The position numbers and the translations under genes were made by a program. Below are positions 620-12,919 of a DNA stretch of 13,146 nt, one piece after another. The DNA comes from Chloroflexota bacterium (lineage in GTDB: Bacteria; Chloroflexota; Limnocylindria; Limnocylindrales; CSP1-4). The stretch is from positions 1 to 13,146 of the forward strand of contig JAJYJR010000094.1 of assembly GCA_021789355.1 (NCBI GenBank), written 5' to 3'. Each line of letters opens with the position of its first letter. The first letter of the stretch is position 1. The notes beneath the pieces were generated by a model, which had not been told where the DNA came from, made no database searches, and saw only the letters and a program-made list of their open reading frames with translations.

Positions 620-1369
620 CTACCGGGTGGAGCGGCGCCGGTACTCCGCAAAGACGCGCTCGTTGTTGTCCTTGGGGATGCTGGTGATGTTCGGCGACAC
701 GAACACGGGCAACTCGATGCCCCGCTCGGCCAGCACCTTGGCCAGCTCCGCAGTCAGGGCCATGCTGATCGCGATGACAGCCAGGGTCGACCCGGCCGCG
801 ACGGGGGCCGGCCAGCCCTCCACCGTCACCATGGCATCGATCGGCTCGACGCAGTTGTCAATCACGATGTCGGCGACGTCGGCGAGACGCCTGCCGCTCG
901 AATGCTTGGGCGCATTGATTGCAAGGTTGGCGGCCGACGTCACCGCGACGACCTTGAGCCCCCGCTGCTTCGCGTAGAGCGCGGTTTCGACGGGGGCCGC
1001 GTTCAGGCCACCGTGGGAGTACACGACCATGGTGTCGACCGGCTCGAGGGGGTAGTTGTCGAGGAAATGCGCGATGTAACCCTCTTCTCGCTCGAGCCAG
1101 AGCAGCTCACTCACGCCACCCGAACCAAGGACAGTGAACCAGCTCAGCCGCGAGTCGACCAGCGGCCGGAAGACCGGGTAGCTCCCGTAGCGCGGGAAGA
1201 TGTCCATCACGGGCAACACGGAATGGCCGCTCCCGAACAGATTGACGAGTCCGCCGGCAGCCACGGTGTCGGCCATGACGCACGCGGCGTCATGGATAGT
1301 GGCCTGTTGGGTCGTGGCAATTCGGTCGAGCAACGCGCGAGCCTGGGTGAAGTATGCCTGTTCGGACAT
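620..1369 (-). CDS. SIS-domain sugar isomerase-like protein (SIS_2 family), 249 aa
   Basis: This is a single-SIS-domain protein of the cytosolic phosphosugar-binding type related to phosphoheptose isomerases (SIS_2, the 'sugar isomerase domain-containing' group of about 240-250 aa). The substrate-binding loop NLFGSGHS is at about 43-50. A second phosphate-binding segment, VYSHGGLNAAPVETALYAKQRG, starts near 114 and is followed by a Rossmann-like strand, VVAVTS. The conserved C-terminal segment FVSPNITSIPKDNN is typical of this group. The ATG at 1369 overlaps the stop of the upstream ROK gene (TGATG), and AAGGAG lies 5 nt before it, so the two are translationally coupled. Members often sit beside ROK kinases and CUT1 transporters, as here, and probably act on the phosphorylated imported sugar (inference). 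MurQ is a more distant alternative. Confidence 0.88.
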   Translation of the reverse strand: MSEQAYFTQARALLDRIATTQQATIHDAACVMADTVAAGGLVNLFGSGHSVLPVMDIFPRYGSYPVFRPLVDSRLSWFTVLGSGGVSELLWLEREEGYIAHFLDNYPLEPVDTMVVYSHGGLNAAPVETALYAKQRGLKVVAVTSAANLAINAPKHSSGRRLADVADIVIDNCVEPIDAMVTVEGWPAPVAAGSTLAVIAISMALTAELAKVLAERGIELPVFVSPNITSIPKDNNERVFAEYRRRSTR

Positions 1370-2274
1370 CAGGTCTCCTTTCCACGACTGAGCTGGAGGG
1401 CGAGGTAAGCGGCGCCGTATAGGCTTGAGAGGGCGCCGAGCGACGACCCCTCGACTTTCACGCCCCGGGCGGCGAATGGCTGGGTCATTTCGAGGAGCAT
1501 CTCGCGCACTCGTTCGACAACGTCGGGGCGGGCGCCGACGCTGCCCCCCAACACCACGATCTCCGGCGCGAACAGCGCCACGATCGCTCCGACGCCAGCG
1601 GTCAACGCGAGCAGCCCACGCTCGACCGCAGCTCCGGCGGCAGGATCATCCGCCTCCGCCGCGGTGAAGACCGCGGGCGTGTCGGGGTAAGCAAAGGCAT
1701 CCTCGCCGCGCAGGCGGCGAGCCTCGGCAAGGATGGCGGGACCCGATGCTACGTCCTCGAGACGCGGGCCAGGTGTGCCGTCGTACGGGAAGCGCAGCCA
1801 CCCGATGCCGCCCGCGATGGCCGTGGCGCTGCGGATCAGCCGGCCGCCATGCATGATCCCGGCGCCGACCCCGGTCCCGGCGATGACAACTGCGGCGTCA
1901 CGGTGGCCACGCGCACTCCCCTGCCACCATTCGCCCAGCGTGGCGCCATAGCCGTCGAACTCCACCACCGCTGGCACCCCGAGGCGATCGGCGGCCAGAT
2001 CGCGGAGCGCCAGGCCGTCCCACCCGGCGATGCTCTCAGCCACCCACGCGAGCCGTCCCTCCTGCACCACCGCCGGCAAGACGATTCCACAAGACGCGGC
2101 TGAATACCCCCGCGCGAGCTCCGCCGCCCAACCGAGGACGGTAGCGACGGCTGTATTGGGCGACGCCTTGGGGGTAGCGTAGATGCGCTGCTCGACAACA
2201 CTCCCGCCGGCTGTGACCAGGGCCAAGGCCACCTTCGTGCCTCCGATATCGATGGCGAGCACGTTCCGGGTCAT
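1369..2274 (-). CDS. ROK-family sugar kinase-like protein lacking the zinc motif, 301 aa
   Basis: ROK proteins are cytosolic sugar kinases, or repressors when an N-terminal HTH is present; there is no HTH here. The N-terminal ATP-binding phosphate-1 motif LAIDIGGTKVALALV is at 6-20. EFDGYGATLGE at 105-115 carries the expected catalytic aspartate (Asp107) where the family usually has E-N-D-x-N. The phosphate-2 motif IAGTGVGAGI is at 131-140, and the adenosine segment IVVLGGSVG at 239-247. The segment where ROKs normally carry E-x-GH and the C-x-C-G-x2-G-C zinc site reads AGGIGWLRFPYDGTPGPRLED (154-174): no zinc cysteines and Trp instead of His. The start is the ATG at 2274, which overlaps the preceding permease stop by 4 nt (ATGA). 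It likely phosphorylates the sugar brought in by the adjacent ABC importer; the atypical active site leaves the substrate uncertain. Confidence 0.85.
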   Translation of the reverse strand: MTRNVLAIDIGGTKVALALVTAGGSVVEQRIYATPKASPNTAVATVLGWAAELARGYSAASCGIVLPAVVQEGRLAWVAESIAGWDGLALRDLAADRLGVPAVVEFDGYGATLGEWWQGSARGHRDAAVVIAGTGVGAGIMHGGRLIRSATAIAGGIGWLRFPYDGTPGPRLEDVASGPAILAEARRLRGEDAFAYPDTPAVFTAAEADDPAAGAAVERGLLALTAGVGAIVALFAPEIVVLGGSVGARPDVVERVREMLLEMTQPFAARGVKVEGSSLGALSSLYGAAYLALQLSRGKET

Positions 2275-3149
2275 CCCTTGATACCGCTCTGGGCGAGGCC
2301 GGTGACGAAGAACCGCTGCAGGAGCAGGAACAGGATCATGTTGGGGATGACGCTGATGAGCGCACCCGCCATCACCACGTTCTGGAACTGGACACTCGAC
2401 GTGTAGCTCAGCAGCCGGCTCAGCGCGAGCACGATCGTGAACTTGTCGGGCGACTGCAGGACGGTCAGCGGCCAGAGGAAGCTGTTCCACTGGTAGACGA
2501 ACGCGAACAGGACCAGCGTCGCCACCGCTGGCCGCAGCAGCGGGGCGATGATCCGCCACAACACCGTCCACTCGGAGGCCCCGTCGACGCGGGCCGCGTC
2601 GATCAGCTCGTCGGGAAGGCCGCCGATGAACTGCCGCATCAGGAAGATCCCGAACGCGTTCGCGAGCTGAGGCAGCATGACGCCGGGATAGGAGTCGACG
2701 AACCCCAACGACTGGATCACGTGAAACAACGGCACCAGCGTCACGATCGTCGGCACGAACATCGTGGCCAGCACGACGAGAAAGAGGGCGTCGCGCCCTC
2801 GGAAGTGATACTTGGCGAACACAAAGCCGGCCATGACGCTCGTGATCACGATCGCGACCGTGTCGCCGGCCGCGATGAAGAACGAGTTCAGGAACGCCTG
2901 TCCGTAGGGGATCACCGAGAAGACCTGCTGGAAAGCCCCGAGAGTCGGGGCCGCCGACCACCAGATGGGCGGCAAGCGGCCTAGTTCGTCAGGCGACTTG
3001 AGGCTCGAGGCCACCATCCAAAAGAGCGGCAGGAGGATCGCAGCTCCCGTCACGGCCAGCAGTGCGTACTGCACGATGCGCAGGGGGATGCGGCCCAGTC
3101 GACCGGGCACGGGCGGAACTCTCGTCGCGCGCGAGATCCGGGCGGTCAT
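2271..3149 (-). CDS. Carbohydrate ABC transporter permease, MalG type (CUT1), 292 aa
   Basis: This is an inner-membrane permease subunit of a CUT1 sugar importer, pairing with the MalF-type subunit encoded just upstream. Its length is usual for MalG relatives. Hydrophobic segments suggest six helices; the first follows a basic N-terminus (IVQYALLAVTGAAILLPLFW, near 26-45). The cytoplasmic EAA loop that docks the ATPase is DAARVDGASEWTVLWRIIAPLLRP, and the C-terminus QRFFVTGLAQSGIKG is the classic MalG-family ending. GAGGAG (complement of 3157-3162) lies 7 nt before the ATG at 3149, inside the end of the preceding gene, with only 4 nt between the genes. It overlaps the ROK start by 4 nt. No ATP-binding subunit is encoded in the window. 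Confidence 0.95.
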   Translation of the reverse strand: MTARISRATRVPPVPGRLGRIPLRIVQYALLAVTGAAILLPLFWMVASSLKSPDELGRLPPIWWSAAPTLGAFQQVFSVIPYGQAFLNSFFIAAGDTVAIVITSVMAGFVFAKYHFRGRDALFLVVLATMFVPTIVTLVPLFHVIQSLGFVDSYPGVMLPQLANAFGIFLMRQFIGGLPDELIDAARVDGASEWTVLWRIIAPLLRPAVATLVLFAFVYQWNSFLWPLTVLQSPDKFTIVLALSRLLSYTSSVQFQNVVMAGALISVIPNMILFLLLQRFFVTGLAQSGIKG

Positions 3150-3153
3150 CGCC

Positions 3154-4023
3154 TCACTCCTCGCTCACCGCACGCAGGACGATCGTCACCACGGCCGCCA
3201 GCACGACGAGCAGCAGAATCGCCATCGCGCTTGCCGCCCCCGCCCGGCCGAACTGAAAGGCCGTCTGGTAGATGTCGAAGGTCAGCACGTTGGTGCTGTT
3301 GACCGGGCCGCCCTGGGTCAGAACATAGATCGGGTCGAAGACCTGCAGGCTGTTGATCAGTGCGATGACCCCGACGAACGTCAGCGTGCGGCGCAGCATC
3401 GGCACCGTCACATAGCGGGCCTGGGCGAAAGCACCGGCCCCGTCGATGGACGACGCGTCGTAGTAGTCCTGCGGGATCTGCGTCAGCCCAGCCAGCACGA
3501 GTACGGTGTAGTACCCGAGCGTCTGCCAGATGTTGAGCACGACCAGCGAAGCCATTGCCTCGTTGGTCGAACCGAGGAATGCCTGCGGTGGCAAGCCGAC
3601 CGCAGCTAGGAGCTGGTTGAGCGGGCCGTACAGGGGTGAATAGAGGTATCCCCAGATGAGCGCCACGGCGACGGTGGGGACCATGTACGTCATGAAGAGC
3701 AGCGTCCGGAGCACGGTCTTGCCATGGATCGCTGGCCGGTACAGGAAGATCCCGAAGAAGAGCGAGAGCGGGACGATCAACAGGACGCTCAGCCCGGTGT
3801 ACACGGCCGTGTTCAGGAGGGCCTGCTGGAAGGTGGGGTCGCCGAGGACCTCCTGGTAGTTCGCCAGGCCGACGAAGGGCATCTGGGTCAGCGGTGTATA
3901 CATGGACCAGAGATGCAGACTGATCCAAGCCGTCAGGAGGATCGGCAGCAGCACGAAGAGGGCAATGAGGCCGACGCCGGGTGCGAGAAACACGGCCGAC
4001 CAGATCCGCTGGGTGTGGGCCAT
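3154..4023 (-). CDS. Carbohydrate ABC transporter permease, MalF type (CUT1), 289 aa
   Basis: This is the membrane-spanning partner of the MalG-type permease. An N-terminal helix (AVFLAPGVGLIALFVLLPILL) is followed by the periplasmic segment FVGLANYQEVLGDPTFQQALLNT, typical of UgpA/MalF-like proteins. The EAA loop is DASSIDGAGAFAQARYVTVPMLRRTL, and the family segment DPIYVLTQGGPVNSTNVL follows it. About six helices are expected. I chose the ATG at 4023; a GTG 15 nt upstream (4038) in the same frame would add MRAVS but has no Shine-Dalgarno. AAGG lies about 14 nt before the ATG, within a hairpin. The gene is separated from the solute-binding protein gene by 111 nt of strongly structured sequence, suggesting lower expression than the binding protein. 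Confidence 0.93.
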   Translation of the reverse strand: MAHTQRIWSAVFLAPGVGLIALFVLLPILLTAWISLHLWSMYTPLTQMPFVGLANYQEVLGDPTFQQALLNTAVYTGLSVLLIVPLSLFFGIFLYRPAIHGKTVLRTLLFMTYMVPTVAVALIWGYLYSPLYGPLNQLLAAVGLPPQAFLGSTNEAMASLVVLNIWQTLGYYTVLVLAGLTQIPQDYYDASSIDGAGAFAQARYVTVPMLRRTLTFVGVIALINSLQVFDPIYVLTQGGPVNSTNVLTFDIYQTAFQFGRAGAASAMAILLLVVLAAVVTIVLRAVSEE

Positions 4024-4037
4024 GCTCACCGCACGCA

Positions 4038-4119
4038 CCTTGGGCCGGCCACAAGGCGGGCCAGACGGACGGTCCCGGGGCGCCGCGGCCTGCCGGCCGG
4101 TGCAACGTCCCGAGACCGT
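4038..4119 (-). promoter_or_regulatory. Intercistronic stem-loops between solute-binding protein and permease genes
   Basis: Two nested structures fill most of the 111-nt gap. The 11-base arms at 4069-4079 and 4109-4119 pair with a single mismatch, and the loop holds a further 5-bp hairpin (CGGCC 4086-4090 / GGCCG 4095-4099). Nearer the permease start, CCTTG (4038-4042) pairs with CAAGG (4052-4056). On the transcribed strand this last arm contains the AAGG upstream of the permease ATG. No U-tract follows, so it is not a canonical terminator. By analogy with malE-malF intercistronic repeats it may protect the upstream message and lower permease expression (inference). Confidence 0.6.
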
Positions 4120-4134
4120 GCGCCGTGCATTGCG

Positions 4135-5520
4135 CTACTTGTAGTACTGGCTGAGGATCTGCTGGACCTGCGACTGCGCCGACTGCATGGCTGCCTGCGG
4201 AGTCGCCTGGCCGAATTCCACGCTTTCGATCGACTTCTGGACCGCGACCGTCAGCTCGGCGCCGCCCAGGGTGATCGGGAAGGGGATCGCCGACGCTTGG
4301 CCGTCGACGTAGGCCTTCAGGAACGGCGTCCCGAGCTTGTCCTGGAACGCCTGCACGTCAGAGGTTCGACTGGGCAGGATGCCCATGGTCATGAGCAGGT
4401 CGCCCATGCCGGCCGCTCCTGTGGTGGTGCCGCTGCCCGGGTCATCGAGCCATTGCAGGAACTTCCACGCGGCCGCCTGCTGGTCTGCCGTCGCGTGCGC
4501 GTTCACCACCGTCAACCACGCATACGAGACGCTGTGCGAGGCATCGCCGTGCGGTCCAACCGGTACCGGCGCCGTTCCCACGTTCGCGAAGTTGGTGCCC
4601 ATGGCGCTCTGCAGAGCGCTTTCCCACCAGTTCGCCATAACGATCATGGCGGTCTTGCCGCTCGTGAAGTTGTCCAGGAAGGGCCCCGTCGTGTTGGCGT
4701 TGGAGGTCCCCATTGCCGGGTCGGTCACCTTGTCCGTGTGGATCAGCTGATCGTAGAGGCTGGTGACCTCCAGATCGGCGGTCGAGGTCAACTGCGGCGC
4801 CGGGGGATTGCCGTCGAGCAGCTTGCCACCGTCAGATAGCACGAACGACAGCCAGGGGTGGACCACGCCCGAGTCCCAGCTGTTGATCAGCCCGAACCCT
4901 TGCTGGGTGATGGTCCCTGAGCTGTTCCGCTTGGTCAGGAGCTTGGCGTCGCTGATCAACTGCGCCCAGGTCGTCGGCGGTGCGCTGATCCCCGCATCAG
5001 CGAAGAGCTTCTTGTTGTAGTTGAGCATGTACAGGTCGACCTCGTTCGGGTAACCGTAGACTTTGCCGTTGACCGTCACGGCCCCGGCCACGAGGTTTGG
5101 TGCCCAATTCGCCTGGATGTCCTGAAGGTTCTCAGCGGGTGCCGGCGCAACGATCCCGTCCTGCACGAGCTCCGGCAGCCACAGGTCGTAGATCCCGGCG
5201 ATCGTCGGGCCGCTCGGGCTGGACGCCTGGGCACGCAACGTGCTCAGCAGGCTGCCGAATGGCACCGCGCGAACCTGCACCGTGATGTTGGGGTTTGCCT
5301 GGTGGAAGGCGGCGATGTCCTTGTTCAGGAGATCGACCTGCTGGGGCGGCCAGTGGGTGAGGTATGTGATCGTCACTGGGGCGCCGCCGCTCGATGCGGC
5401 CGGCGCGGCAGCAGACGTGGCGGGCGAACTGCCGGCCACGCCTGGCGTCGCCGTCTGACCGCTCGATCCGCAGGCCGCCACCAAGACCGCAATCGTGATA
5501 ATGGCGCCGAGTCTCCGCAT
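4135..5520 (-). CDS. Extracellular sugar-binding lipoprotein of an ABC transporter (SBP family 1), 461 aa
   Basis: This is the substrate-capture protein of the CUT1 importer, anchored outside the membrane by a lipid. The start is the ATG at 5520, with GAGGAGG (complement of 5527-5533) 6 nt upstream. The signal peptide is MRRLGAIITIAVLVAAC, with lipobox V-A-A-C and acylated Cys17. An Ala/Ser/Thr/Gly-rich linker follows to about residue 48, and then the mature fold starts with VTITYLTHWPP. Family 1 landmarks include GTIAG-like segment GPTIAGIYDLWLPELVQDG, VNGKVYGYPNEVDLYMLNYNKKLF and the late segment AAAWKFLQWLDDP. Length is as expected. It is first in the operon and divergent from gntR. Which sugar is bound cannot be read from the sequence; neighbouring enzymes favour an amino or phosphorylatable monosaccharide. 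Confidence 0.93.
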   Translation of the reverse strand: MRRLGAIITIAVLVAACGSSGQTATPGVAGSSPATSAAAPAASSGGAPVTITYLTHWPPQQVDLLNKDIAAFHQANPNITVQVRAVPFGSLLSTLRAQASSPSGPTIAGIYDLWLPELVQDGIVAPAPAENLQDIQANWAPNLVAGAVTVNGKVYGYPNEVDLYMLNYNKKLFADAGISAPPTTWAQLISDAKLLTKRNSSGTITQQGFGLINSWDSGVVHPWLSFVLSDGGKLLDGNPPAPQLTSTADLEVTSLYDQLIHTDKVTDPAMGTSNANTTGPFLDNFTSGKTAMIVMANWWESALQSAMGTNFANVGTAPVPVGPHGDASHSVSYAWLTVVNAHATADQQAAAWKFLQWLDDPGSGTTTGAAGMGDLLMTMGILPSRTSDVQAFQDKLGTPFLKAYVDGQASAIPFPITLGGAELTVAVQKSIESVEFGQATPQAAMQSAQSQVQQILSQYYK

Positions 5521-5625
5521 GTACAGCCTCCTCGCCGCAGCGCTCCATAGCGTGGGGCTCTTGCGCCCGGGGCTGCCGCCCTGGCGAGCGACTCGGGTGC
5601 TGAGCCACACACGGCCAGCATGATG

Positions 5626-5639
5626 TCATAATGTTATGA
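5626..5639. promoter_or_regulatory. AT-rich inverted repeat, candidate GntR operator in the divergent promoter region
   Basis: TCATAA-TG-TTATGA is a perfect 6-bp-arm inverted repeat in an AT-rich island inside very GC-rich DNA. It lies between the divergent binding-protein gene (start 5520) and gntR (start 5672). The overlapping hexamers CATAAT (5627-5632) and TATGAT (5635-5640) resemble -10 elements for gntR, but I see no good -35 partner. A palindromic site here could let the GntR protein control both directions (inference). Confidence 0.55.
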
Positions 5640-5671
5640 TGGATGCAAGAGCTAACAAGGGAGGCGCTCAG

Positions 5672-6469
5672 ATGACGGGGGAAGATGTCAAACGCGTCTC
5701 GCGGGACAGCCAGATCCCCCTCCACCATCAGATCGCGAACGACCTGCGGGAGCGCATCGGATCTGGCGCCTGGGCACCAGGACGGCGCATTCCGGGCGAG
5801 CCGGAACTGACGCGCCTCTACGGTGCCAGCCGCATCACCATCCGGCAGGCACTCAGCAACCTGGAGCGCGAGGGGCTGATCTCCCGTGAACCCGGAAGGG
5901 GTTCGTTCGTGCGGGACCCGACGATCACTGCCGGACCACGGCGCCTCACCTCATTGACGCAGGAACTCCGCGCCCGCGGTCTCGAGCCGAGCTCGCGGAT
6001 ACTCTCCCTGGCGGAGGTGCCGGCCGACGAGCAGGTGGCCGAGAAGCTCGGTCTGCCGGTCGGGGCGCTGGTGGTCCGGCTTGAGCGGTTGCGCTTCGGC
6101 AACGGGGAAGCTATGGGGGTCCAAACCGCGCATCTACCGGCCGACCGCTTCCCTGGTCTGGCGCGTGTCGACTTCTCCCACGCCTCACTGTACGAGGAGC
6201 TGCAGCGGCGGTACGGGGCCACAGTAGACGAGGCGGAGGAGACCTACATCGTCAGTCGTATCGAGGGCGATGCAGCGAGCCAGCTCGACGTCCCTCCCGG
6301 CACCCCCGGCCTGGTGGTCGAGCGCGTCGCCTGGAGCGAGGGACGACGAATCGAGTTCACCCGCTCACTGATGCGTGGCGATCGCTACCGCATCGTGGTG
6401 CATCTGCGCCGGGCGGCGGTCCCAGGCGCCGGACATCGCCACACGGAGTCCGCGACCGTCGGCGCTTGA
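5672..6469 (+). CDS. GntR-family transcriptional regulator with UTRA domain (HutC subfamily), 265 aa
   Basis: This is a DNA-binding regulator, very likely of the divergent sugar importer and catabolic operon. Residues about 14-80 form the GntR winged helix: IPLHHQIANDLRERI, then the recognition region LTRLYGASRITIRQALSNLE, and the wing EGLISREPGRGSFV. The UTRA ligand-binding domain follows (about 90-245), with the typical start RRLTSLTQELRARGLEPSSRIL and family-like segment LYEELQRRYG. HutC-type regulators such as NagR/DasR sense phosphorylated amino sugars, which fits the SIS and ROK neighbours, but the effector here is inferred. An in-frame ATG exists at 5636, but AAGGGAGG at 5657-5664 lies 7 nt before the ATG at 5672, so the shorter protein is preferred. 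The 5636 start would also run through the proposed operator. Confidence 0.93.
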   Translation: MTGEDVKRVSRDSQIPLHHQIANDLRERIGSGAWAPGRRIPGEPELTRLYGASRITIRQALSNLEREGLISREPGRGSFVRDPTITAGPRRLTSLTQELRARGLEPSSRILSLAEVPADEQVAEKLGLPVGALVVRLERLRFGNGEAMGVQTAHLPADRFPGLARVDFSHASLYEELQRRYGATVDEAEETYIVSRIEGDAASQLDVPPGTPGLVVERVAWSEGRRIEFTRSLMRGDRYRIVVHLRRAAVPGAGHRHTESATVGA

Positions 6470-6972
6470 GCGAAGCGGGATAGCGGCGCCGCCATGCGGG
6501 AGCCCGACACGCCACCTACCTGCTGGAACATGTAGGTGGCGTGCGAGAGCTCGAGCGGACGACCCGCCGATTGCCGAGCACGGGCCCGTTTCACGCGGGC
6601 CGATTCGAGCGTGGAATGGTCCGGCGGAGCGGGTGGGGCTCGAATCCTGCAAAGGCAGCCCACAGTGGTTGCCGCGTTCGTGCGTCAGCGTTCGGGAGCG
6701 TCAGCCGACATCTTGAGCCGCGCGCGGACAGGCTCTCCGGCTGGTCCGCCCGACCGGGTGCGACTGCCCCAACGGGCAGCCGCTGCCACAAGGCTTCAGG
6801 TCCGGCGATGCGGCCCCTTCGTCAGGCCTCACGGGCGCGGGGTTCGTGGTCCGCGCGATCGTCGGTGGCATCGCCGCGTCACGCCCCTTCGGGCGCGCTG
6901 GCGGCGACCGGCGATCCGGCGGCGGCAACCCCACAGGACTCTCGGTGGACGCGGGCGGAGTTCCGCTTCCAG
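6470..6972. other. 503-bp convergent intergenic region with hairpins, no convincing gene
   Basis: The region lies between the stops of gntR (plus) and fixCX (minus). Open frames exist on both strands but are arginine/proline-rich and show no recognisable domain. Besides the large inverted repeat at 6508-6543, smaller perfect hairpins occur: GGCCCG/CGGGCC at 6583-6601, CTGC-AAAG-GCAG at 6647-6658 enclosed by GTGGG/CCCAC (6633-6637/6659-6663), CTGCCC-CAAC-GGGCAG at 6764-6779, and CGCCC-CTTC-GGGCG at 6882-6895. Some may serve transcript 3' ends or an unannotated RNA; short GC hairpins also arise by chance in DNA this GC-rich. Confidence 0.5.
6508..6543 (+). repeat. Perfect 12-bp inverted repeat 38 nt after gntR stop (possible transcript 3'-end hairpin)
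   Basis: CACGCCACCTAC (6508-6519) and GTAGGTGGCGTG (6532-6543) are exact reverse complements separated by a 12-nt loop. A stem of this length without mismatch is unlikely by chance in a 500-bp gap. No T-run follows on either strand, so classical intrinsic termination is doubtful. It could mark a bidirectional 3' end for the convergent genes or be part of a structured RNA. Confidence 0.75.
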
Positions 6973-8640
6973 TCATAGCTGCCGATAGCGCGGCCCCTCG
7001 CCGCCCTCCGGCGGCACCCAGCGGATGTTGTCTGACGGGCACTTCACGGTGCACGTCATGCAGTGCAGGCAGTTCGACGGGCTCAGCACGATCCGTTCGC
7101 CGTTCCAGCGGTAGACCTCGCCGGGGCAGAAGTGCGTGCAGGCGGCCTCGTACACGCTCCCGCAGGCGGCACAGCGCGCCGGGTCCAGGAGCGTCACGTG
7201 GGAGGGCTCGTCCTCCCGGTGTGAGGTACCGGTCAGGGCCAGAAAGCCCGCGCCGTCGGCGTGCTCGGGGGGGCGACGCGCCAGCCGGGCCCGCGGTCGG
7301 GTCCCCTGCCGGTCGGGCGGCATGTGCAGGTGGAGGGGCAGGTGCTCCCCCACCTCGGAGAGAAGCGCACCCGGCACCAGGCCCCACCGGAATCCCTGGC
7401 GGTACGTCCGGGCGCGGTGCAGCTCGGCGAGGATGCCGCGCTCGTCGAGCAGCCGCAGGTAGCGTGCCCCCGCTGCCTCCGCCGGCTCTCCCGCGAGCAG
7501 CGCGTCGGCGATCGCGTCGGCCGCGCACATGCCGCTGCGCATCGCGTAGTGCACGCCCTTGAGCTTCGCCTCGTTGACGAAGCCGGCCGCGTCGCCAACC
7601 GCCAGCGTGCCGGGCACATGCAGCGGCCCCAGCGCGTAGTAGCCGCCCTCGGGGATCGTCCTGGCCCCGGTGGCGATCGTGGTCGATCCGGCCAGCAGAC
7701 GGGCCACGAAGGGATGCGCCAGGAACGTCTCGAACTCGACCCGCGGATCGAGATCGCCGTAGCGCCAATCGAGCCCCAGGATGAGCCCCGCCGCCGCGGT
7801 CTTCGGACCCATGCTGTAGACGAAGCCCCCGCCGAAGATCCCGCGCCGGGTGGGGAACCCGAGTGTGTGCACGACCCGGTTGTTCCCGAACGGGTTGACG
7901 CCCGCGAACTGGACCACGGCCTTGACCCCGAGCCCGTAGACCTGGAGGTCGCGGGACTCGCCGGGGCCGACCTCGGCGCGGCCCCGGCCCTGGCCGTCGC
8001 CGGGATCGCGCGGGTCCCGTGAGCCGTCGGATCCTCGGATCTCGCGGTCCAGTGCGTCGAGCTGCGAGGAGAGGACGCCGCGCGAACCGTCGGCAAGGAC
8101 CGTGATGGCCGCCCGCACGTCCTCTCCGGGCAGGTAGTTCGCCTTGGGGCGGCCTTCCGCGTCGAGGCCCACGTCGACCAGTCGGACCCCGCGCACCGTC
8201 CCCGCCTCGACCAGCAGCTCGCGCGCGGCAAAGCCGTGGTACACCTCGGCTCCCAGGCGCGACGCCTGCTCGCCCAGGAAGGCCGCCAGGCGCGACACCG
8301 AGAGCGTGACGTCCCCCGCGTGGCGCATCGTTCGCGGAACCAGCGGCGACGGGAGCCGCACGGCCCCGCGTTCGGTCAGCACGTACAGCTCGTCGCGCTC
8401 GACCGGAGTCACGTGGTCGGCGAAGCGGCTCCGATCGCTCCTCCAGTCGGGCAGCAGCTCGTCGAGGGCAGCCGGCTCGACAATGGCACCGGAGAGGTTG
8501 TGGTAGCCCGGCGCGGCGGCCTTGTCGAGCACCACCACCGATTCCTCGCGTCCGGCCGCCTGCAGCCGCTGCCGGAGCCGGATCGCGGTCGAGAGTCCCG
8601 CGGGGCCGGCCCCGACGACCAGGACGTCAATCGCCGACAT
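6973..8640 (-). CDS. FixC/ETF-quinone oxidoreductase flavoprotein fused to FixX-like ferredoxin domain, 555 aa
   Basis: It likely accepts electrons from the ETF encoded upstream and passes them through FAD and Fe-S to the quinone pool. The N-terminal FAD Rossmann motif VVGAGPAGLSTAI is at 8-20, the ETF-QO segment GYHNLSGAIVEP at 45-56, and the second FAD motif LAVGDAAGFVNEAKLKGVHYAMRSG at 346-370. The C-terminal Fe-S domain has eight cysteines (490, 493, 501, 505, 524, 527, 530, 534) and ends in EGGEGPRY, resembling FixX's terminal G-G-F/E-G-x-x-Y. Separate FixC is about 430 aa and FixX about 95 aa, so this is a FixC-FixX fusion with ETF-QO layout. A polar Gly/Arg/Asp-rich insert occupies about 200-229. 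The ATG at 8640 overlaps the ETF gene by 14 nt; GAGG lies 9 nt upstream. ETF-QO versus Fix cannot be settled without phylogeny. Confidence 0.92.
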   Translation of the reverse strand: MSAIDVLVVGAGPAGLSTAIRLRQRLQAAGREESVVVLDKAAAPGYHNLSGAIVEPAALDELLPDWRSDRSRFADHVTPVERDELYVLTERGAVRLPSPLVPRTMRHAGDVTLSVSRLAAFLGEQASRLGAEVYHGFAARELLVEAGTVRGVRLVDVGLDAEGRPKANYLPGEDVRAAITVLADGSRGVLSSQLDALDREIRGSDGSRDPRDPGDGQGRGRAEVGPGESRDLQVYGLGVKAVVQFAGVNPFGNNRVVHTLGFPTRRGIFGGGFVYSMGPKTAAAGLILGLDWRYGDLDPRVEFETFLAHPFVARLLAGSTTIATGARTIPEGGYYALGPLHVPGTLAVGDAAGFVNEAKLKGVHYAMRSGMCAADAIADALLAGEPAEAAGARYLRLLDERGILAELHRARTYRQGFRWGLVPGALLSEVGEHLPLHLHMPPDRQGTRPRARLARRPPEHADGAGFLALTGTSHREDEPSHVTLLDPARCAACGSVYEAACTHFCPGEVYRWNGERIVLSPSNCLHCMTCTVKCPSDNIRWVPPEGGEGPRYRQL

Positions 8641-10594
8641 GGCCCGGGACCTCGGTGGCTCGCGCCGGGACCTCGGTGGCTCGCGCCGGGACCTCGGTGG
8701 CTCGCGCCGGGACCTCCGTCGCGCGGATGAGGGCGGGCACCACCTCGGCGATGTCGCCGACCATGCCGAGGTCCGCGTAGTCGAAGATGCGCGCGCGCGG
8801 ATCCCGGTTGATGGCCACCACGAGGTCCGCGTGCTGCATGCCCGAGACGTGCTGCACCGCGCCCGAGATGCCGATCGCGACGTAGAGACGCGGCGTCACG
8901 GTCTGGCCGGTCTGCCCGACCTGGTGCTCCCGGCTCGCGTACCCATCCTCCACTGCCATGCGCGACGCGCCGATGTCGCTCCGGGCGCCCAGGCGGGCCC
9001 CGAGGTTTCGCGCCAGTGGTTCCAGCAGCGCGTGGAACTCGGCCCGCGAGCGCATGCCACGGCCGCCGGCCACGATGATCTGGGCGTCCCGGATCGAGGA
9101 TGAGGAGGCCGCCGCCTCGACCGAGACGATCTCGAGCCCGATCGACTCGTCCCGCAGCTCAGGGACGGCCCGCACGACCTCGCCCCTCCTGGCCGGGTCC
9201 CGCAGCGGCACGCTGAAGACGCCGGGCCGCACGGTGGCCATCTGGGTCGGCGACGCGCGTGTCATGATGGTGGCCATGACGTTGCCGCCCAGGGCCGGAC
9301 GGGTCTGCTTGAGGATCGCCACCAGCGATACGCTGCCCTTGGCGTAGTCGCCGATCTCGAGTTTCGTGCAGTCCGCGGTGAGGCCGCAGTCCGAAGCGTA
9401 GGCCACGCGGGGCGCCAGCTCCCGCCCCCACGGCGTCGCGCCGAAGAGCATCACCTGCGGCCGGTGCGCCCGCACGGCGCCAGCGATGGCCTGCGCGTGG
9501 GCGCTCGGGATGACGGGGTGCAGCGACGGATGCTCCAGCGCGTACACCCGGTCCGCCCCGTACGCGATCAGCTCGCAGGCGAGATCGCCCAGCTCGGCGC
9601 CGGCAAGCACGGCTCCCACCGGCACGCCCAGCGGCGCGGCGAGCTGTCGCGCCTTGCCCAGCAGCGCCAGCGAGACCGATCGGATCCCTCGGGCCTCGCG
9701 CTCGGCGTAGACCCAGAACTCGCCCTGGTAGGTGGGGGTCTGACCCGCGAGATCGTAGCGCGCATCAGAGTCGGCTGGGGCGTGCCGCGGGCCGCTGCGG
9801 TAGTGCGCATCCATCAGGGCGACGAGCTCTTCCGCATCCTGCGCGAGGACGCAGCTGCGGGCCCTGCCCTCGTTGGGCGAGAACAGCTGATAGACCTGGG
9901 TGCGCGAGCCGCGGAGCCCGATGCGTGCGGGTTCCGCACCCACCGACGCGGCGCTCCACTCGTGGATCGCGGCGGCGCGTGCCGCGCGGACGCCATGGAA
10001 CGAGCGATAGAGCGGCGCGGTGCAGGCGGTGAGCGTCACGAGCACCGGGAAGCGCCGCGGTCGCACCGTCTCGGTCCCCTCCGGACCGATGCGCCGGACC
10101 TCGAACGCGGGCCCCACGTCGGGACCGCTGACGTACGCGATCTGCTCGATCCCCAGCTCCTCGGCGACCTGCGGTGGCACCTGCGCGGTATCGCCGTCCA
10201 CGGACTGCATGCCGGCGACGATCACGTACGCGCGGCTACCGTCGAAGAACTCGCGCTCGATGCGCCGGATGGCGCAGGCCAGCGAGTACGCGGTGGCCAC
10301 GGTGTCGGCGCCCGCAAACCCCCGATCCGTCAGCAGCACTGCCTCGCCCGGTGCGCGAGCCATGCAGTCGACCAGGACCTCGCGCGCCTGGGGCGGCCCC
10401 ATCGTCAGGTACACGGTGCGGGAGCCCGGCGCAGCCGCGGCGAGGCGACTCGCGAACGTCACCGCCTGGAGGTCGAGCGGGTTGAGGATGCTCTCGAGCA
10501 TGCCCCGCTTGAGGGTGCCATGCTCCGTGTCCCACGCATCCTCCGGGATGTTCGAGACGTCGGGGACCTGCTTCACCAGGACGACGCAATGCAT
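8627..10594 (-). CDS. Fused electron transfer flavoprotein: EtfB/FixA followed by EtfA/FixB in one chain, 655 aa
   Basis: This is a soluble two-domain flavoprotein electron carrier between dehydrogenases and the adjacent FixCX/ETF-QO. Residues 1 to about 255 are the beta subunit: start HCVVLVKQVPD and nucleotide-site motif DGDTAQVPPQVAEELG at 133-148. After a linker (about 256-291), residues 292-623 are the alpha subunit: EFWVYAE start, VGQTGQTVTPRLYVAIGISGAVQH at 559-582, and AINRDPRARIFDYADLGMVGD at 594-614, the FAD-binding signature. Normally these are two separate proteins. No stop or frameshift lies between them; the frame is open throughout. The C-terminus adds four RATEVPA-like repeats. 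The ATG at 10594 matches the canonical EtfB N-terminus; an ATG at 10624 (adding MPDTARENPR) is possible. The chain overlaps fixCX by 14 nt and follows the ACT gene by 44 nt. Confidence 0.93.
   Translation of the reverse strand: MHCVVLVKQVPDVSNIPEDAWDTEHGTLKRGMLESILNPLDLQAVTFASRLAAAAPGSRTVYLTMGPPQAREVLVDCMARAPGEAVLLTDRGFAGADTVATAYSLACAIRRIEREFFDGSRAYVIVAGMQSVDGDTAQVPPQVAEELGIEQIAYVSGPDVGPAFEVRRIGPEGTETVRPRRFPVLVTLTACTAPLYRSFHGVRAARAAAIHEWSAASVGAEPARIGLRGSRTQVYQLFSPNEGRARSCVLAQDAEELVALMDAHYRSGPRHAPADSDARYDLAGQTPTYQGEFWVYAEREARGIRSVSLALLGKARQLAAPLGVPVGAVLAGAELGDLACELIAYGADRVYALEHPSLHPVIPSAHAQAIAGAVRAHRPQVMLFGATPWGRELAPRVAYASDCGLTADCTKLEIGDYAKGSVSLVAILKQTRPALGGNVMATIMTRASPTQMATVRPGVFSVPLRDPARRGEVVRAVPELRDESIGLEIVSVEAAASSSSIRDAQIIVAGGRGMRSRAEFHALLEPLARNLGARLGARSDIGASRMAVEDGYASREHQVGQTGQTVTPRLYVAIGISGAVQHVSGMQHADLVVAINRDPRARIFDYADLGMVGDIAEVVPALIRATEVPARATEVPARATEVPARATEVPGHVGD
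8645..8728. repeat. Tandem 21-bp repeat: three identical units plus one diverged unit
   Basis: Identical 21-bp units starting CGGGACCTCGG occupy 8645-8665, 8666-8686 and 8687-8707, with a diverged fourth copy at 8708-8728. They lie in the coding frame and encode the heptapeptide repeat R-A-T-E-V-P-A at residues 624-651 of the fused ETF. On the coding strand each unit carries a GAGG; the last one sits 9 nt before the fixCX ATG and may act as its ribosome binding site. The sequence identity of three copies points to recent slippage or expansion. Confidence 0.95.
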
Positions 10595-10638
10595 GCGGGG
10601 GTTCTCACGAGCGGTGTCGGGCATGACCCGCCACGCCC

Positions 10639-11052
10639 TCAGCGGGTCCCGGCCGGCACCTCGGCGGGGGGCAGGCCCAGGACCTCGCGGGCTCGCGCCT
10701 CGTCGCTGACCGTCAACGCGATCTGGGTCATGCCGTGGTGACGCCCCACGGTGAGGATGCCTGTGAGGTTGACGCCGCCGGCGGCCAGTCGTTCCGTCAG
10801 CTCCGCGATGCCGCCCGGGCGATCCTCGACCTCCAGGTGCAGCGTGTCGCCCTCGACGAACGGGAGCCCCAGGCTGCGGAGCACCTCGCGCGTCAGCGTG
10901 TCGTTGTCGGTCGTGATCCGGGCACACATCTTGTCACCGGCGCTCGTGCCCACGACCTGTTCGATGTTGATGCCACGGACGGCGAGCGCGCGCGTGACGT
11001 GCGCGAGCTCGCCCACACGGTTCTCGAGCTGGACCACGAACGGTCGACCCAC
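10639..11052 (-). CDS. Tandem ACT-domain protein, 137 aa
   Basis: This small cytosolic protein consists of two ACT domains. The first (about 3-65) is FVVQLENRVGELAHVTRALAVRGINIEQVVG; the second (about 72-130) is LHLEVEDRPGGIAELTERLAAGGVNLTGILTVGRHHG. Both show the beta-alpha-beta pattern with the G-x-L/I-A-x-[LV] turn. ACT domains usually bind amino acids and regulate enzymes or transporters; stand-alone double-ACT proteins are mostly uncharacterised. The start is a GTG at 11052 with GGGAGGAGG (complement of 11058-11066) 5 nt upstream, a strong site. It is the first gene of the ETF operon, 44 nt before the fused ETF gene. Its presence suggests an amino-acid link to the electron-transfer module, though the connection is inferred only from position. 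Confidence 0.88.
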   Translation of the reverse strand: MGRPFVVQLENRVGELAHVTRALAVRGINIEQVVGTSAGDKMCARITTDNDTLTREVLRSLGLPFVEGDTLHLEVEDRPGGIAELTERLAAGGVNLTGILTVGRHHGMTQIALTVSDEARAREVLGLPPAEVPAGTR

Positions 11053-11140
11053 GGTTGCCTCCTCCCGCAGCTCACCGCCGCGCCACCTGGCTCCCCTCGG
11101 AGGCGGCCCGCCGGCTGTCGGTCCGAGGCGAGACCCCGAT

Positions 11141-11178
11141 CGTGGGTGGCTGCACGGAGCGTGCAGAAGGGCCCCACG
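11141..11178 (-). promoter_or_regulatory. Stem-loop upstream of the ACT-ETF operon
   Basis: CTGCACG (11150-11156) and CGTGCAG (11160-11166) form a perfect 7-bp stem with a GAG triloop. It is enclosed by a second perfect stem, CGTGGG (11141-11146) with CCCACG (11173-11178), joined by an asymmetric internal loop. It lies in the 201-nt gap between the esterase stop (11254) and the ACT start (11052), 88 nt before the latter. No U-run follows on the minus strand, so it may be a leader structure or a rho-assisted 3' end of the esterase transcript. Confidence 0.5.
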
Positions 11179-11253
11179 ACACAACGGGCGAGGGTCGGAG
11201 GATAGTTCGGGACCTGCCACCTGGCCCGATGCCGGAGGCACTGGGTCGGTCGC

Positions 11254-12153
11254 TCACGTCTCCCGGGCGTGCGTGGCGAAGAAGTCCCAGGCGACCCGCG
11301 TCGCGCCGAAGGCATGGCTCCTCCGGCCGAGGAACGGCGGTACCCACTCGCGGTTGCCCGGCCAGGTGTGGCCGCCACCCTCGACGCGGTAGAAGACGAC
11401 GTCGGAGGCGGGCGAGTCCCCACGCCAGCGGCGGACGGTCGTGTCCGGCGGGATGGTCTCGATGTCGGGTACGTCCTGCGCCCGATTGACCTCCACCCAG
11501 CGGCGGGCCCACTCGTCGACCCCGACGCACGGACCGGCCGGATGGCGCAGGACCAGCCGCGCGCGGAGTCCGTGCGCCCGTCCCCCGGCGTACGGGGCGT
11601 AGCGGTCGCCCGTGCCGTGGACCTGGAGGACCGGCACCGGGAGCGCCGGGCGGCAGCCGGCGGCGACGTCGACCGCCGCGGTCCCGGCCACCTGGGCGAA
11701 CGCCGCGATCCGCTCGGGGTGCTCGCAGACGAGGCGCGCGGCCATGGTCGCGCCGTTCGACATCCCCACGACGTAGATTCGCCGACGGTCGATCGGCAGG
11801 CGGGCACAGGCGTCGTCGATGACCGCCAGGAGGTACCCCACGTCGTCAGGACCGTCCCGCACCAGTCTCGGGAAGCGCCCGTCGTTCCAGGTCTCGCCGA
11901 CCGCGCTCGGCATCGCCAGTACGACGCCCGCCTCGTCGGCGAGCGTCGAGAACCCCGTCCATCGGTCGAACATGGCGGGATCGATGCCGCGACCGTGGAG
12001 CTCGACGAGCAGCGGGGCAGGCTCCGCCGGTGGCGCTGCCGGAACGCGGAGCAGATAGGGCCGCTCGCGCCCCCCGTGGCGCAACGGAATCGCGTGGCTG
12101 CGGGCCGTCGGCTCCACCGTGTGGTAGAGGACCCGCTCCGCTCGGTCCGTCAC
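11254..12153 (-). CDS. PHB-depolymerase/feruloyl-esterase-like alpha/beta hydrolase (LpqC-like), 299 aa
   Basis: This is a serine hydrolase of the esterase family that includes PHB depolymerases and feruloyl esterases. The oxyanion strand LLVELHGRG is at 48-56, the nucleophile elbow GMSNG places Ser132, HGTGD places Asp183, and GGGHTWPG places His262, so a full catalytic triad is visible in order. No signal peptide or membrane segment is seen, so it is probably intracellular, unlike secreted PHB depolymerases. The start is taken as the GTG at 12153, whose GTGA overlaps the TetR stop by 4 nt; a TTG at 12180 would add nine residues but would overlap tetR by 31 nt. Coupled translation with tetR and divergence from an exporter suggest a role in modifying or detoxifying an ester compound (inference). 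The substrate is unknown. Confidence 0.87.
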   Translation of the reverse strand: MTDRAERVLYHTVEPTARSHAIPLRHGGRERPYLLRVPAAPPAEPAPLLVELHGRGIDPAMFDRWTGFSTLADEAGVVLAMPSAVGETWNDGRFPRLVRDGPDDVGYLLAVIDDACARLPIDRRRIYVVGMSNGATMAARLVCEHPERIAAFAQVAGTAAVDVAAGCRPALPVPVLQVHGTGDRYAPYAGGRAHGLRARLVLRHPAGPCVGVDEWARRWVEVNRAQDVPDIETIPPDTTVRRWRGDSPASDVVFYRVEGGGHTWPGNREWVPPFLGRRSHAFGATRVAWDFFATHARET

Positions 12154-12803
12154 CGGCGGGGACGATCCGGGCTCGGGCAACCGGCTGCGAGGATGGCGAA
12201 GGCGGCGCGGAGCACCTCGAGCACCGCCGCCGGGGGCAACGCACCGTCTGCCTGGCGGCCACGGAGCGTGCGAAGGGCCGTCCGGGCGGCGGACACCGCG
12301 GCGCGGGCGATCACGGCGGCGTGCAGCGCGAGCTCGTCGTCGAGGGCGGTCGCATCGGCCGCCCTGAACCGCTCCAGCAGCACCCCGGCGAGCCGATCCT
12401 CCCAGTCCACGAAGGCCCGGGCCAGTCGGCCGGCCAGCACGGCGTCCGCCGGGCCGAGACCGGGCGCCAGCAGCGTGGCACCACCGGCGACCCCGGAGCC
12501 GTCGATCGCGCCAGTGAAGGCCTCAAGGATCGCGGTCAGTGGCTGCTCGTCGCGCGGCCGGCCGCGGATCGCCCGCTCGACCACCTCGAACATGGCGACC
12601 ACGTCGGGCAGCAGCAGATCTTCCTTCGACTCGAAGTAGCGGAAGAAGGTCCGCTCGGACACGTCGGCGGCGTCGGCGATCTCCTGGACGGTGGTGGCGG
12701 CGAAACCCTGCTGCGCGAACAGCCGTCGCGCGGAGGCCCGCAGCGCCTCCCGCGTCCGGGCCTTCTTCCGCTCGCGGCGCCCCGGCGTCTCCAACCCGTC
12801 CAT
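12150..12803 (-). CDS. TetR-family transcriptional regulator, 217 aa
   Basis: A basic N-terminal tail (RRERKKARTREALRASARRLF) leads into the TetR helix-turn-helix, TTVQEIADAADVSERTFFRYFESKEDLL, at about 37-64. The alanine-rich helical C-terminal half is the ligand-binding and dimerisation domain, with no recognisable ligand signature. TetR proteins normally repress and are released by a small molecule. The ATG at 12803 fits the usual TetR N-terminus; the frame stays open upstream to 12899, but that part crosses the promoter region. No Shine-Dalgarno precedes the ATG, and a predicted -10 ends 6 nt before it, so the message may be leaderless. The gene is coupled to the esterase downstream and divergent from the MMPL exporter, its probable target. 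Confidence 0.92.
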   Translation of the reverse strand: MDGLETPGRRERKKARTREALRASARRLFAQQGFAATTVQEIADAADVSERTFFRYFESKEDLLLPDVVAMFEVVERAIRGRPRDEQPLTAILEAFTGAIDGSGVAGGATLLAPGLGPADAVLAGRLARAFVDWEDRLAGVLLERFRAADATALDDELALHAAVIARAAVSAARTALRTLRGRQADGALPPAAVLEVLRAAFAILAAGCPSPDRPRR

Positions 12804-12809
12804 GGAGCG

Positions 12810-12838
12810 ACGATAGCCCCTTCTGTCAGCGACGTCAA
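12810..12838 (-). promoter_or_regulatory. Predicted promoter of tetR-esterase operon (leaderless)
   Basis: On the minus strand TTGACG (complement of 12833-12838, 5/6 to the -35 consensus) is followed after 17 nt by TATCGT (complement of 12810-12815, 4/6 to the -10). The tetR ATG starts 7 nt after the -10, about where transcription would begin. This agrees with the absence of a ribosome binding site there. Confidence 0.5.
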
Positions 12839-12856
12839 CTGTCACCGTTGACAGTT
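12837..12856. promoter_or_regulatory. Palindromic operator, probable TetR binding site
   Basis: AACTGTCA (12837-12844) and TGACAGTT (12849-12856) are exact reverse complements separated by CCGT. The site overlaps both the minus-strand -35 and the plus-strand -35, an ideal place for repression of both directions. Further CTGTCA copies lie at 12823-12828, 12884-12889 and 12893-12898. Confidence 0.7.
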
Positions 12857-12876
12857 CTGCACCCATGGCATAGCAT
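12848..12876 (+). promoter_or_regulatory. Predicted promoter of the MMPL exporter gene
   Basis: A perfect TTGACA at 12848-12853 and TAGCAT at 12871-12876 (4/6 to the -10 consensus) are separated by 17 nt. The -35 lies within the palindrome 12837-12856. The expected start of transcription would leave a leader of about 35 nt before the exporter ATG. Confidence 0.55.
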
Positions 12877-12919
12877 CGCAGGACTGTCAGTCCTGTCACA
12901 TTCCTGGGAGTCCCCGCCC

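What the first reader, a model, noticed from the sequence alone, without database searches (positions are those of the whole stretch)
6973..10594. fixABCX/ETF system condensed into two overlapping fusion genes
Four functions that are usually separate genes (EtfB/FixA, EtfA/FixB, FixC, FixX) occur as two polypeptides, EtfB-EtfA and FixC-FixX, in the classical fixABCX order with a 14-nt overlap. The compaction would enforce 1:1 stoichiometry. Whether it works as an ordinary ETF:quinone oxidoreductase or as an electron-bifurcating complex is open.
Basis: partly seen in the sequence, partly recalled or inferred. Interest (0 to 1): 0.75.

Follow-up and report, generated by a model that had tools for sequence, protein, structure and literature searches.

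The report
Two-gene hybrid flavoprotein-to-quinone electron carrier
Two overlapping bacterial genes make a compact electron-transfer system that pairs a flavoprotein of the energy-splitting (bifurcating) kind with a membrane partner of the ordinary respiratory kind; the pair belongs to a scattered family known mainly from metagenomes, and its working mode is untested.

Summary
In detail: on the minus strand an EtfB-EtfA fusion (8627-10594) overlaps by 14 nt a second gene (6973-8640). The reading needs two corrections. (1) The second gene is not a FixC-FixX fusion but an ETF-QO-type protein by domains, model and tree, a single-chain kind anyway; unlike classical ETF-QO it has eight Cys, enough for two [4Fe-4S] clusters (119 of 120 listed hits). 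(2) The pair is not special to this genome: 38 of 40 fused loci of this kind among 80 named loci carry the same partner gene; the other two end at a contig edge. The EtfBA rows tested form one clade, inside the group that holds the five bifurcating ETFs of known structure I included. So: a bifurcating-lineage ETF paired with an ETF-QO. The b-FAD motif DGDTAQV is in every row examined (120/120, 120/120, 45/45), but the SPT hinge that couples bifurcation in Acetobacterium woodii is replaced in all of them. Best reading: a two-flavin ETF, probably NADH-fed, that reduces quinone through two clusters; ferredoxin reduction is open, near even odds. Eight searches of an open-access library showed no description of it.

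The parts
8627..10594 (-). EtfB-EtfA fusion gene, 655 aa
   Evidence: Open frame; start shared with relatives; Pfam ETF x2 + ETF_alpha; best PDB sequence hits are bifurcating ETFs 6fah, 5ol2, 7koe
9788..10594 (-). EtfB half (base domain and C-terminal arm)
10310..10324 (-). RGFAG, the RXFXG NAD-site motif of bifurcating ETFs
   Evidence: Sequence; motif and role from PMC9232219; counts in relatives
10175..10198 (-). DGDTAQVP, b-FAD recognition motif (bifurcating form DGDTAQVGP)
   Evidence: DGDTAQV in 120/120, 120/120 and 45/45 rows; DGDTAQVGP in none of them
9899..9907 (-). SRT in place of the SPT anchor of the EtfB arm
   Evidence: role of SPT from PMC9232219
9767..9784 (-). Least certain stretch of the EtfB-EtfA linker (model residues 270-275, pLDDT under 50)
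8708..9727 (-). EtfA half (domain I and the FAD-carrying shuttle domain II)
9284..9301 (-). RPALGG; carries the arginine that in bifurcating ETFs contacts b-FAD N5 (motif there RPxFGG)
   Evidence: 120/120, 120/120, 45/45 rows have RPALGG; role from PMC10734219 and PMC9232219
8644..8716 (-). 21-nt tandem repeat, 3.5 copies, giving the tail RATEVPA repeats
   Evidence: of seven relatives' tails printed, P0001 and P0005 have repeats and five do not
8627..8640 (-). 14-nt overlap of the two genes
6973..8640 (-). ETF-QO-type quinone oxidoreductase gene, 555 aa
7654..7938 (-). Quinone-binding domain (PF21162)
   Evidence: E 1e-14
7039..7173 (-). FixX-like end with eight Cys (residues 490, 493, 501, 505, 524, 527, 530, 534), enough for two [4Fe-4S] clusters
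   Evidence: pattern in 119 of 120 listed hits, the window's own protein among them
10639..11052 (-). ACT-domain gene 44 nt upstream, possibly co-transcribed
   Evidence: Pfam ACT; GTG start after a GGAGG-like stretch read by eye; of 40 loci compared, this upstream stretch matched L132 only

Best explanation
It is a two-chain electron-transferring flavoprotein : quinone oxidoreductase of hybrid descent. The EtfBA chain comes from the bifurcating (group 2) ETF lineage and most likely binds two FADs: b-FAD in the EtfB half and a-FAD in the EtfA half. A hydride donor, most likely NADH, reduces b-FAD; [quoted passage not shown] Shown here: descent, motifs, fold, Cys ligands, conserved pairing. Inferred: cofactor content, NADH as donor, direction of flow. 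Whether the second, low-potential electron of b-FAD goes to ferredoxin (true bifurcation) is open; I put it at about 0.45 if the two-flavin reading is right.
For: EtfBA of all 27 double-fusion rows in the tree is one clade (SH-aLRT 100) inside a 56-row group (99) with the five bifurcating PDB ETFs and rhizobial FixAB, while ETFs taken as canonical (Paraburkholderia, Microvirga, Sphingobium, Niallia) fall outside. DGDTAQV, which PMC9232219 calls the recognition motif for b-FAD and absent from non-bifurcating Etfs, is in 285 of 285 rows over three overlapping sets. The Gly that leaves room for b-FAD (PMC12630350) lies in it. The N5-contacting Arg is kept in all 285. The window's own NAD motif RGFAG is intact. 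The partner is ETF-QO-like over its whole length with a quinone domain and a two-cluster Cys set. Relatives' genomes carry at least one more ETF (8 of 8); three such loci were tested for the long gene near that ETF, and in all three it is a CCG/Fer4 protein of the EtfD kind, so this system is probably not the only link from acyl-CoA dehydrogenases to quinone there.
Against: SPT is replaced in every row examined; in A. woodii changing SPT cost 90% or more of the coupled activity while NADH:dye activity stayed. DGDTAQVGP is never complete: Pro replaces Gly in all 285 rows. RxGV and the Phe of RPxFGG are changed. The Arg of the NAD motif is missing in 39 of 119 readable window-type hits and in 51 of 120 planctomycete-type hits (Lys in 5 and 43 of these), and the Phe is Leu in all 120 of the latter, which weakens NADH as donor for the family as a whole. 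No flavin, NADH or ferredoxin assay was found. Neighbouring genes give no clue. Fold does not separate bifurcating from canonical ETFs.
Confidence: 0.55

Rival explanations
1. Ordinary, non-bifurcating ETF : ETF-QO. The ETF takes electrons from soluble dehydrogenases onto a-FAD and hands them to the membrane chain; the EtfB site holds AMP or an idle FAD. The changed SPT, RxGV and RPxFGG motifs are signs of lost bifurcation.
For: The coupling-related motifs are altered across the clade; the membrane half is of the classical ETF-QO kind; a canonical ETF is known in a fermenter's lactate cluster, Fusobacterium nucleatum (PMC12630350, passages).
Against: In that F. nucleatum ETF the b-FAD glycine is replaced by Phe, whereas here DGDTAQV is in every row. 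Relatives' genomes hold at least one more ETF, with an EtfD-like protein nearby in the three loci tested. No acyl-CoA dehydrogenase was among the 20 neighbouring proteins tested, though such enzymes need not be adjacent.
Confidence: 0.3
2. Full FixABCX equivalent: NADH is bifurcated to ferredoxin and quinone, with the arm-to-EtfA covalent link and the changed anchor as a different way to gate the domain swing. (A sub-case of the best explanation, listed apart because it is testable on its own.)
For: Group 2 placement; invariant b-FAD motif and Arg; T. maritima variants at the Pro and Val of GXXSPTXV kept at least partial bifurcation (PMC10734219); ferredoxin-linked 2-oxoacid oxidoreductase (PF01558) matches are in 94 of 101 genomes of the class, so ferredoxin is probably in use.
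Against: SPT loss uncoupled the A. woodii enzyme. PF01558 is just as common in genomes of the class without the fusion, so it does not discriminate.
Confidence: 0.3
3. Chance or artefact: an assembly error joined etfB to etfA, or the two genes are an accidental neighbourhood.
For: Window and relatives are mostly metagenome assemblies; two loci have broken frames (L031, L064).
Against: 43 of 80 loci have the same fused frame, and 38 of 40 loci of this clade keep the partner gene.
Confidence: 0.01

Closest known systems
Thermotoga maritima EtfABCX / FixABCX (7koe), membrane-associated bifurcating ETF
   Same: Gene order B-A-C-X, group 2 ETF, flavoprotein plus quinone-reducing half with two clusters (nine Cys in the aligned X segment)
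   Different: Four separate chains; C and X of the FixC/FixX type, not ETF-QO; keeps SPT, RxGV, RPxFGG and DGDTGQVGP
Electron transfer flavoprotein : ubiquinone oxidoreductase (pig 2gmh; bacterial ETF-QO of Microvirga, Paraburkholderia)
   Different: Four Cys (one cluster) in 2gmh, L122, L128, L129, against eight here; the ETFs beside L122 and L128 fall outside group 2
Soluble bifurcating ETFs: CarDE (6fah), Bcd-EtfAB (5ol2), LctBC (7qh2), A. fermentans EtfAB (4kpu)
   Same: Nearest solved structures by sequence for EtfBA and top Foldseek matches
   Different: Separate chains, soluble dehydrogenase partners, SPT and the full b-FAD motif intact, except Ser for the last Pro in CarD
Another EtfBA fusion in actinobacterial and unassigned bins (L053, L055, L058)
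   Same: EtfB and EtfA in one frame
   Different: Separate clade, no FixC/ETF-QO gene in the flanks held, keeps SPT
Nearest sister ETFs, separate genes (Spirochaetota, Planctomycetota, Chloroflexota and others)
   Same: Group 2
   Different: Unfused, no FixC/ETF-QO gene found in the flanks held; one tested neighbour is an acyl-CoA dehydrogenase (L148)

Membership tests
Bifurcating group 2 EtfAB | Placement among bifurcating ETFs in a tree | tested here: met
   56-row group, SH-aLRT 99; quick method, PDB rows are partial segments, and the chosen outgroup is not one side of a branch
Bifurcating group 2 EtfAB | Full b-FAD motif DGDTAQVGP | tested here: not met
   First seven letters in all rows, but Pro for the second Gly: DGDTAQVGP in 0 of 120, 0 of 120, 0 of 45
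Bifurcating group 2 EtfAB | Small residue (Gly) where canonical ETFs are bulky, to admit b-FAD | tested here: met
   DGD kept in all rows; criterion from PMC12630350
Bifurcating group 2 EtfAB | Arg contacting b-FAD N5 | tested here: met
   RPALGG in all rows; this Arg is also found outside group 2
Bifurcating group 2 EtfAB | SPT anchor of the EtfB arm | tested here: not met
   Window SRT; R, K, W or H in the other rows
Bifurcating group 2 EtfAB | RXFXG NAD motif | tested here: inconclusive
   Intact in the window; Arg variable and Phe often Leu or Met in relatives
Bifurcating group 2 EtfAB | Ferredoxin reduction coupled to NADH oxidation | not testable with these tools
   Needs protein
FixABCX | FixC and FixX subunits of the FixC/FixX kind | tested here: not met
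   Second chain falls with ETF-QO, 44-row side, SH-aLRT 100, branch 3.14
FixABCX | Gene order fixA-B-C-X | tested here: met
   By domain order
ETF-QO | FAD, quinone-binding and Fer4_ETF_QO domains in one chain | tested here: met
ETF-QO | One [4Fe-4S] cluster (four Cys) | tested here: not met
   Eight Cys; four in 2gmh, L122, L128, L129
Canonical group 1 ETF | Placement with canonical ETFs; residue other than Gly at the b-FAD position | tested here: not met

The most novel reading that the evidence does not exclude
An undescribed, ancient class of membrane-bound electron bifurcase: a bifurcating ETF whose EtfB arm is covalently tied to EtfA, with a basic or aromatic residue in the hinge instead of SPT, working with a two-cluster ETF-QO instead of FixCX. 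It would split NADH between ferredoxin and quinone in mostly uncultured lineages of at least four phyla.
Probability: 0.4. Interest if true: 0.65.

Novelty: new variant of a known kind. Interest (0 to 1): 0.45.

Why it matters
It is a natural cross between the two known ways an ETF meets quinone. The clade keeps the b-FAD motif but has changed the hinge that couples bifurcation in A. woodii, so it offers a direct test of which features make an ETF bifurcate rather than merely bind two flavins. If it does bifurcate, ferredoxin supply by this route would extend to further lineages. If not, it shows an ETF that keeps its second flavin for plain quinone reduction.

Tried and rejected
Rejected: FixC-FixX fusion. 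Rejected: uniqueness to this genome. I first guessed that the extra cluster of the X part is the exit to ferredoxin; rejected after reading that in T. maritima both clusters lie on the high-potential path to quinone (PMC10734219 passages). I looked for a ferredoxin-like domain in the EtfB-EtfA linker, as in CarE and LctC: no Cys-rich stretch, 0 to 2 Cys in the first 100 linker residues of the rows printed.

Did not discriminate: PF01558 across the class (94 of 101 over the cut-off, all eight close carriers among them); neighbouring genes, which share no theme (20 proteins from seven loci); fold comparison of EtfBA; promoter and terminator scan of 6700-12400, nothing found. The second ETF of the relatives does not always have the EtfD-like gene near it: the neighbours tested in L143, L145 and L148 are an acyl-CoA dehydrogenase, an MTTB-type methyltransferase and an acyl-CoA dehydrogenase, and a 699-aa gene in L144 was not tested.

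Prevalence: 9 of 101 genomes of the class pass E 1e-100, eight of them at 62% identity or more; one of the eight is the centre genome, chosen because it has the gene. In the planctomycete phylum 4 of 246, centre included, and in the Chloroflexota 7 of 301, centre included, two of these at 40-42% identity with stops inside, pass 1e-95. Searches are lower bounds: up to four candidates per genome were scored, and divergent members score lower.

Rows dropped: loci L081-L120 (short or repeated) were left out of the trees; 67 of 106 EtfBA rows were used. E. coli FixAB and YdiQR fall outside the group 2 clade on a long branch, and L124 and L147 are long branches that meet; I draw nothing from these rows. 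In one search a loose pattern reported SPT in 2 of 120 window-type hits; one search shows both matches lie elsewhere in the protein, and that the one row unread there has AWT.

Literature: eight searches of the open-access library; no title, abstract start or passage that I saw describes this pair. Subscription papers, among them the 2017 ETF group classification, are not held, so absence from print is not shown.
Full report
What is there. The minus strand of the window holds an EtfB-EtfA gene (10594 to 8627, 655 aa) followed, with a 14-nt overlap, by a 555-aa gene (8640 to 6973). Pfam gives two ETF stretches and ETF_alpha in the first, and Fer4_ETF_QO and the ETF-QO quinone-binding domain in the second. 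An ACT-domain gene ends 44 nt upstream. No whole genome is held for the window.

How common. Protein searches gave 1842 relatives for EtfBA and 864 for the partner at E 0.001; in each about 8000 candidates were scored and 120 listed, and not all relatives need be double-fusion members. The 120 listed EtfBA hits are 64% identical or more and 625 to 707 aa long; the two with taxon names are Chloroflexi and Limnocylindrales. A search with a planctomycete member gave 1540 hits, the 120 listed at 64% or more. Among 80 named genome loci, 43 have EtfB and EtfA in one frame. Three of these (L053, L055, L058) are a separate fusion without a partner gene in the flanks. Of the other 40, 38 have the partner gene, and the two without it (L001, L019) stop at a contig end. 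In 33 of the 38 the C and X parts were found in one frame; the others are cut by contig ends or, in L064, broken. In L018 the partner lies about 2 kb further down. By record title they come from Chloroflexota (including Dehalococcoidia), Planctomycetota, Verrucomicrobiota and Lentisphaerota, plus one bin labelled Rubrivivax, two labelled Bacteroidetes or Bacteroidales and one UBP9; the odd labels may be misbinning. Whole-genome samples show a patchy distribution: 8 of 101 genomes of one class, the centre included, carry a close relative.

Does it bifurcate? [quoted passage not shown] changing SPT kept NADH:dye activity but removed 90% or more of coupled activity. (The paper's text says the dye activities fell by half, while its table shows NADH:DCPIP unchanged.) Here DGDTAQV is present in 120 of 120 window-type hits, 120 of 120 planctomycete-type hits and 45 of 45 loci, but always followed by Pro, never GP. 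At the Pro of SPT the window-type hits have R in 80 and W in 40 (one of these in AWT), the planctomycete-type K in 108 and R in 12, the loci K, R, W or H. These sets overlap and are close kin, so they are not independent counts. The NAD motif is intact in the window (RGFAG), but its Arg is kept in only 80 of 119 readable window-type and 69 of 120 planctomycete-type hits. The Arg near N5 of b-FAD is kept (RPALGG, all rows) with Leu for Phe. PMC10734219 (passages) reports that variants at the Pro and Val of GXXSPTXV kept at least partial activity, so the SPT change alone does not settle it. The separate actinobacterial fusion keeps SPT, so the change is not a plain consequence of fusing EtfB to EtfA. 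My reading: b-FAD is probably retained under selection, the coupling machinery is altered, and ferredoxin reduction stands near even odds.

Context. Eight carriers' genomes hold one ETF-QO-type domain each (8 of 8) and at least one more ETF (8 of 8). In three of these loci the long gene near the second ETF was tested and is a 700-aa CCG/Fer4 protein resembling EtfD of mycobacteria (the resemblance to EtfD is recalled, not aligned); in three others the tested neighbours are acyl-CoA dehydrogenases or a methyltransferase. So acyl-CoA oxidation probably has its own route to quinone in some of them, which fits an extra role for the hybrid. Genes around the pair share no theme: citrate synthase and malate dehydrogenase in one locus, a CoA-ligase-like gene in another, MreB, PNPase and glycosyltransferases elsewhere.

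Papers. Seen as passages: PMC6085437, PMC5861303, PMC10734219, PMC12630350, PMC5736913; section 8 of PMC9232219 in full and passages of it. The others appear only as search listings. PMC5736913 mentions an Etf dehydrogenase (fixABCX) system in a deep-sea Chloroflexi cell, without describing a fusion in the passages seen.

Noticed in passing
window 8644-8716: Perfect 21-nt tandem repeat (3.5 copies) at the end of EtfBA encodes RATEVPA repeats just before the overlap; P0001 has the same tail, P0005 one copy less, and the other five tails printed have no repeat.
   Followed up: partly
window 620-6469: Looks like a sugar or amino-sugar uptake cluster: solute-binding protein and divergent GntR/UTRA regulator (Pfam), with two permease-like, a ROK-kinase-like and a SIS-like gene judged by eye.
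   Followed up: no
window 11254-12899: PHB-depolymerase-type esterase and a TetR regulator upstream of the ACT gene.
   Followed up: no
EtfB-EtfA linker, window 9851-9853 (Cys 247): A single Cys right after the EtfB arm is near-invariant in the clade (pattern match in 229 of 240 listed relatives) with no obvious role.
   Followed up: partly
L053, L055, L058: A second EtfB-EtfA fusion clade in actinobacterial and unassigned bins, without an ETF-QO gene in the flanks and with SPT intact.
   Followed up: partly
L011, L013, L016 and other planctomycete loci: EtfBA there is about 700 aa, longer by an extra stretch of some 50 residues in the linker, without Cys-rich motifs.
   Followed up: partly
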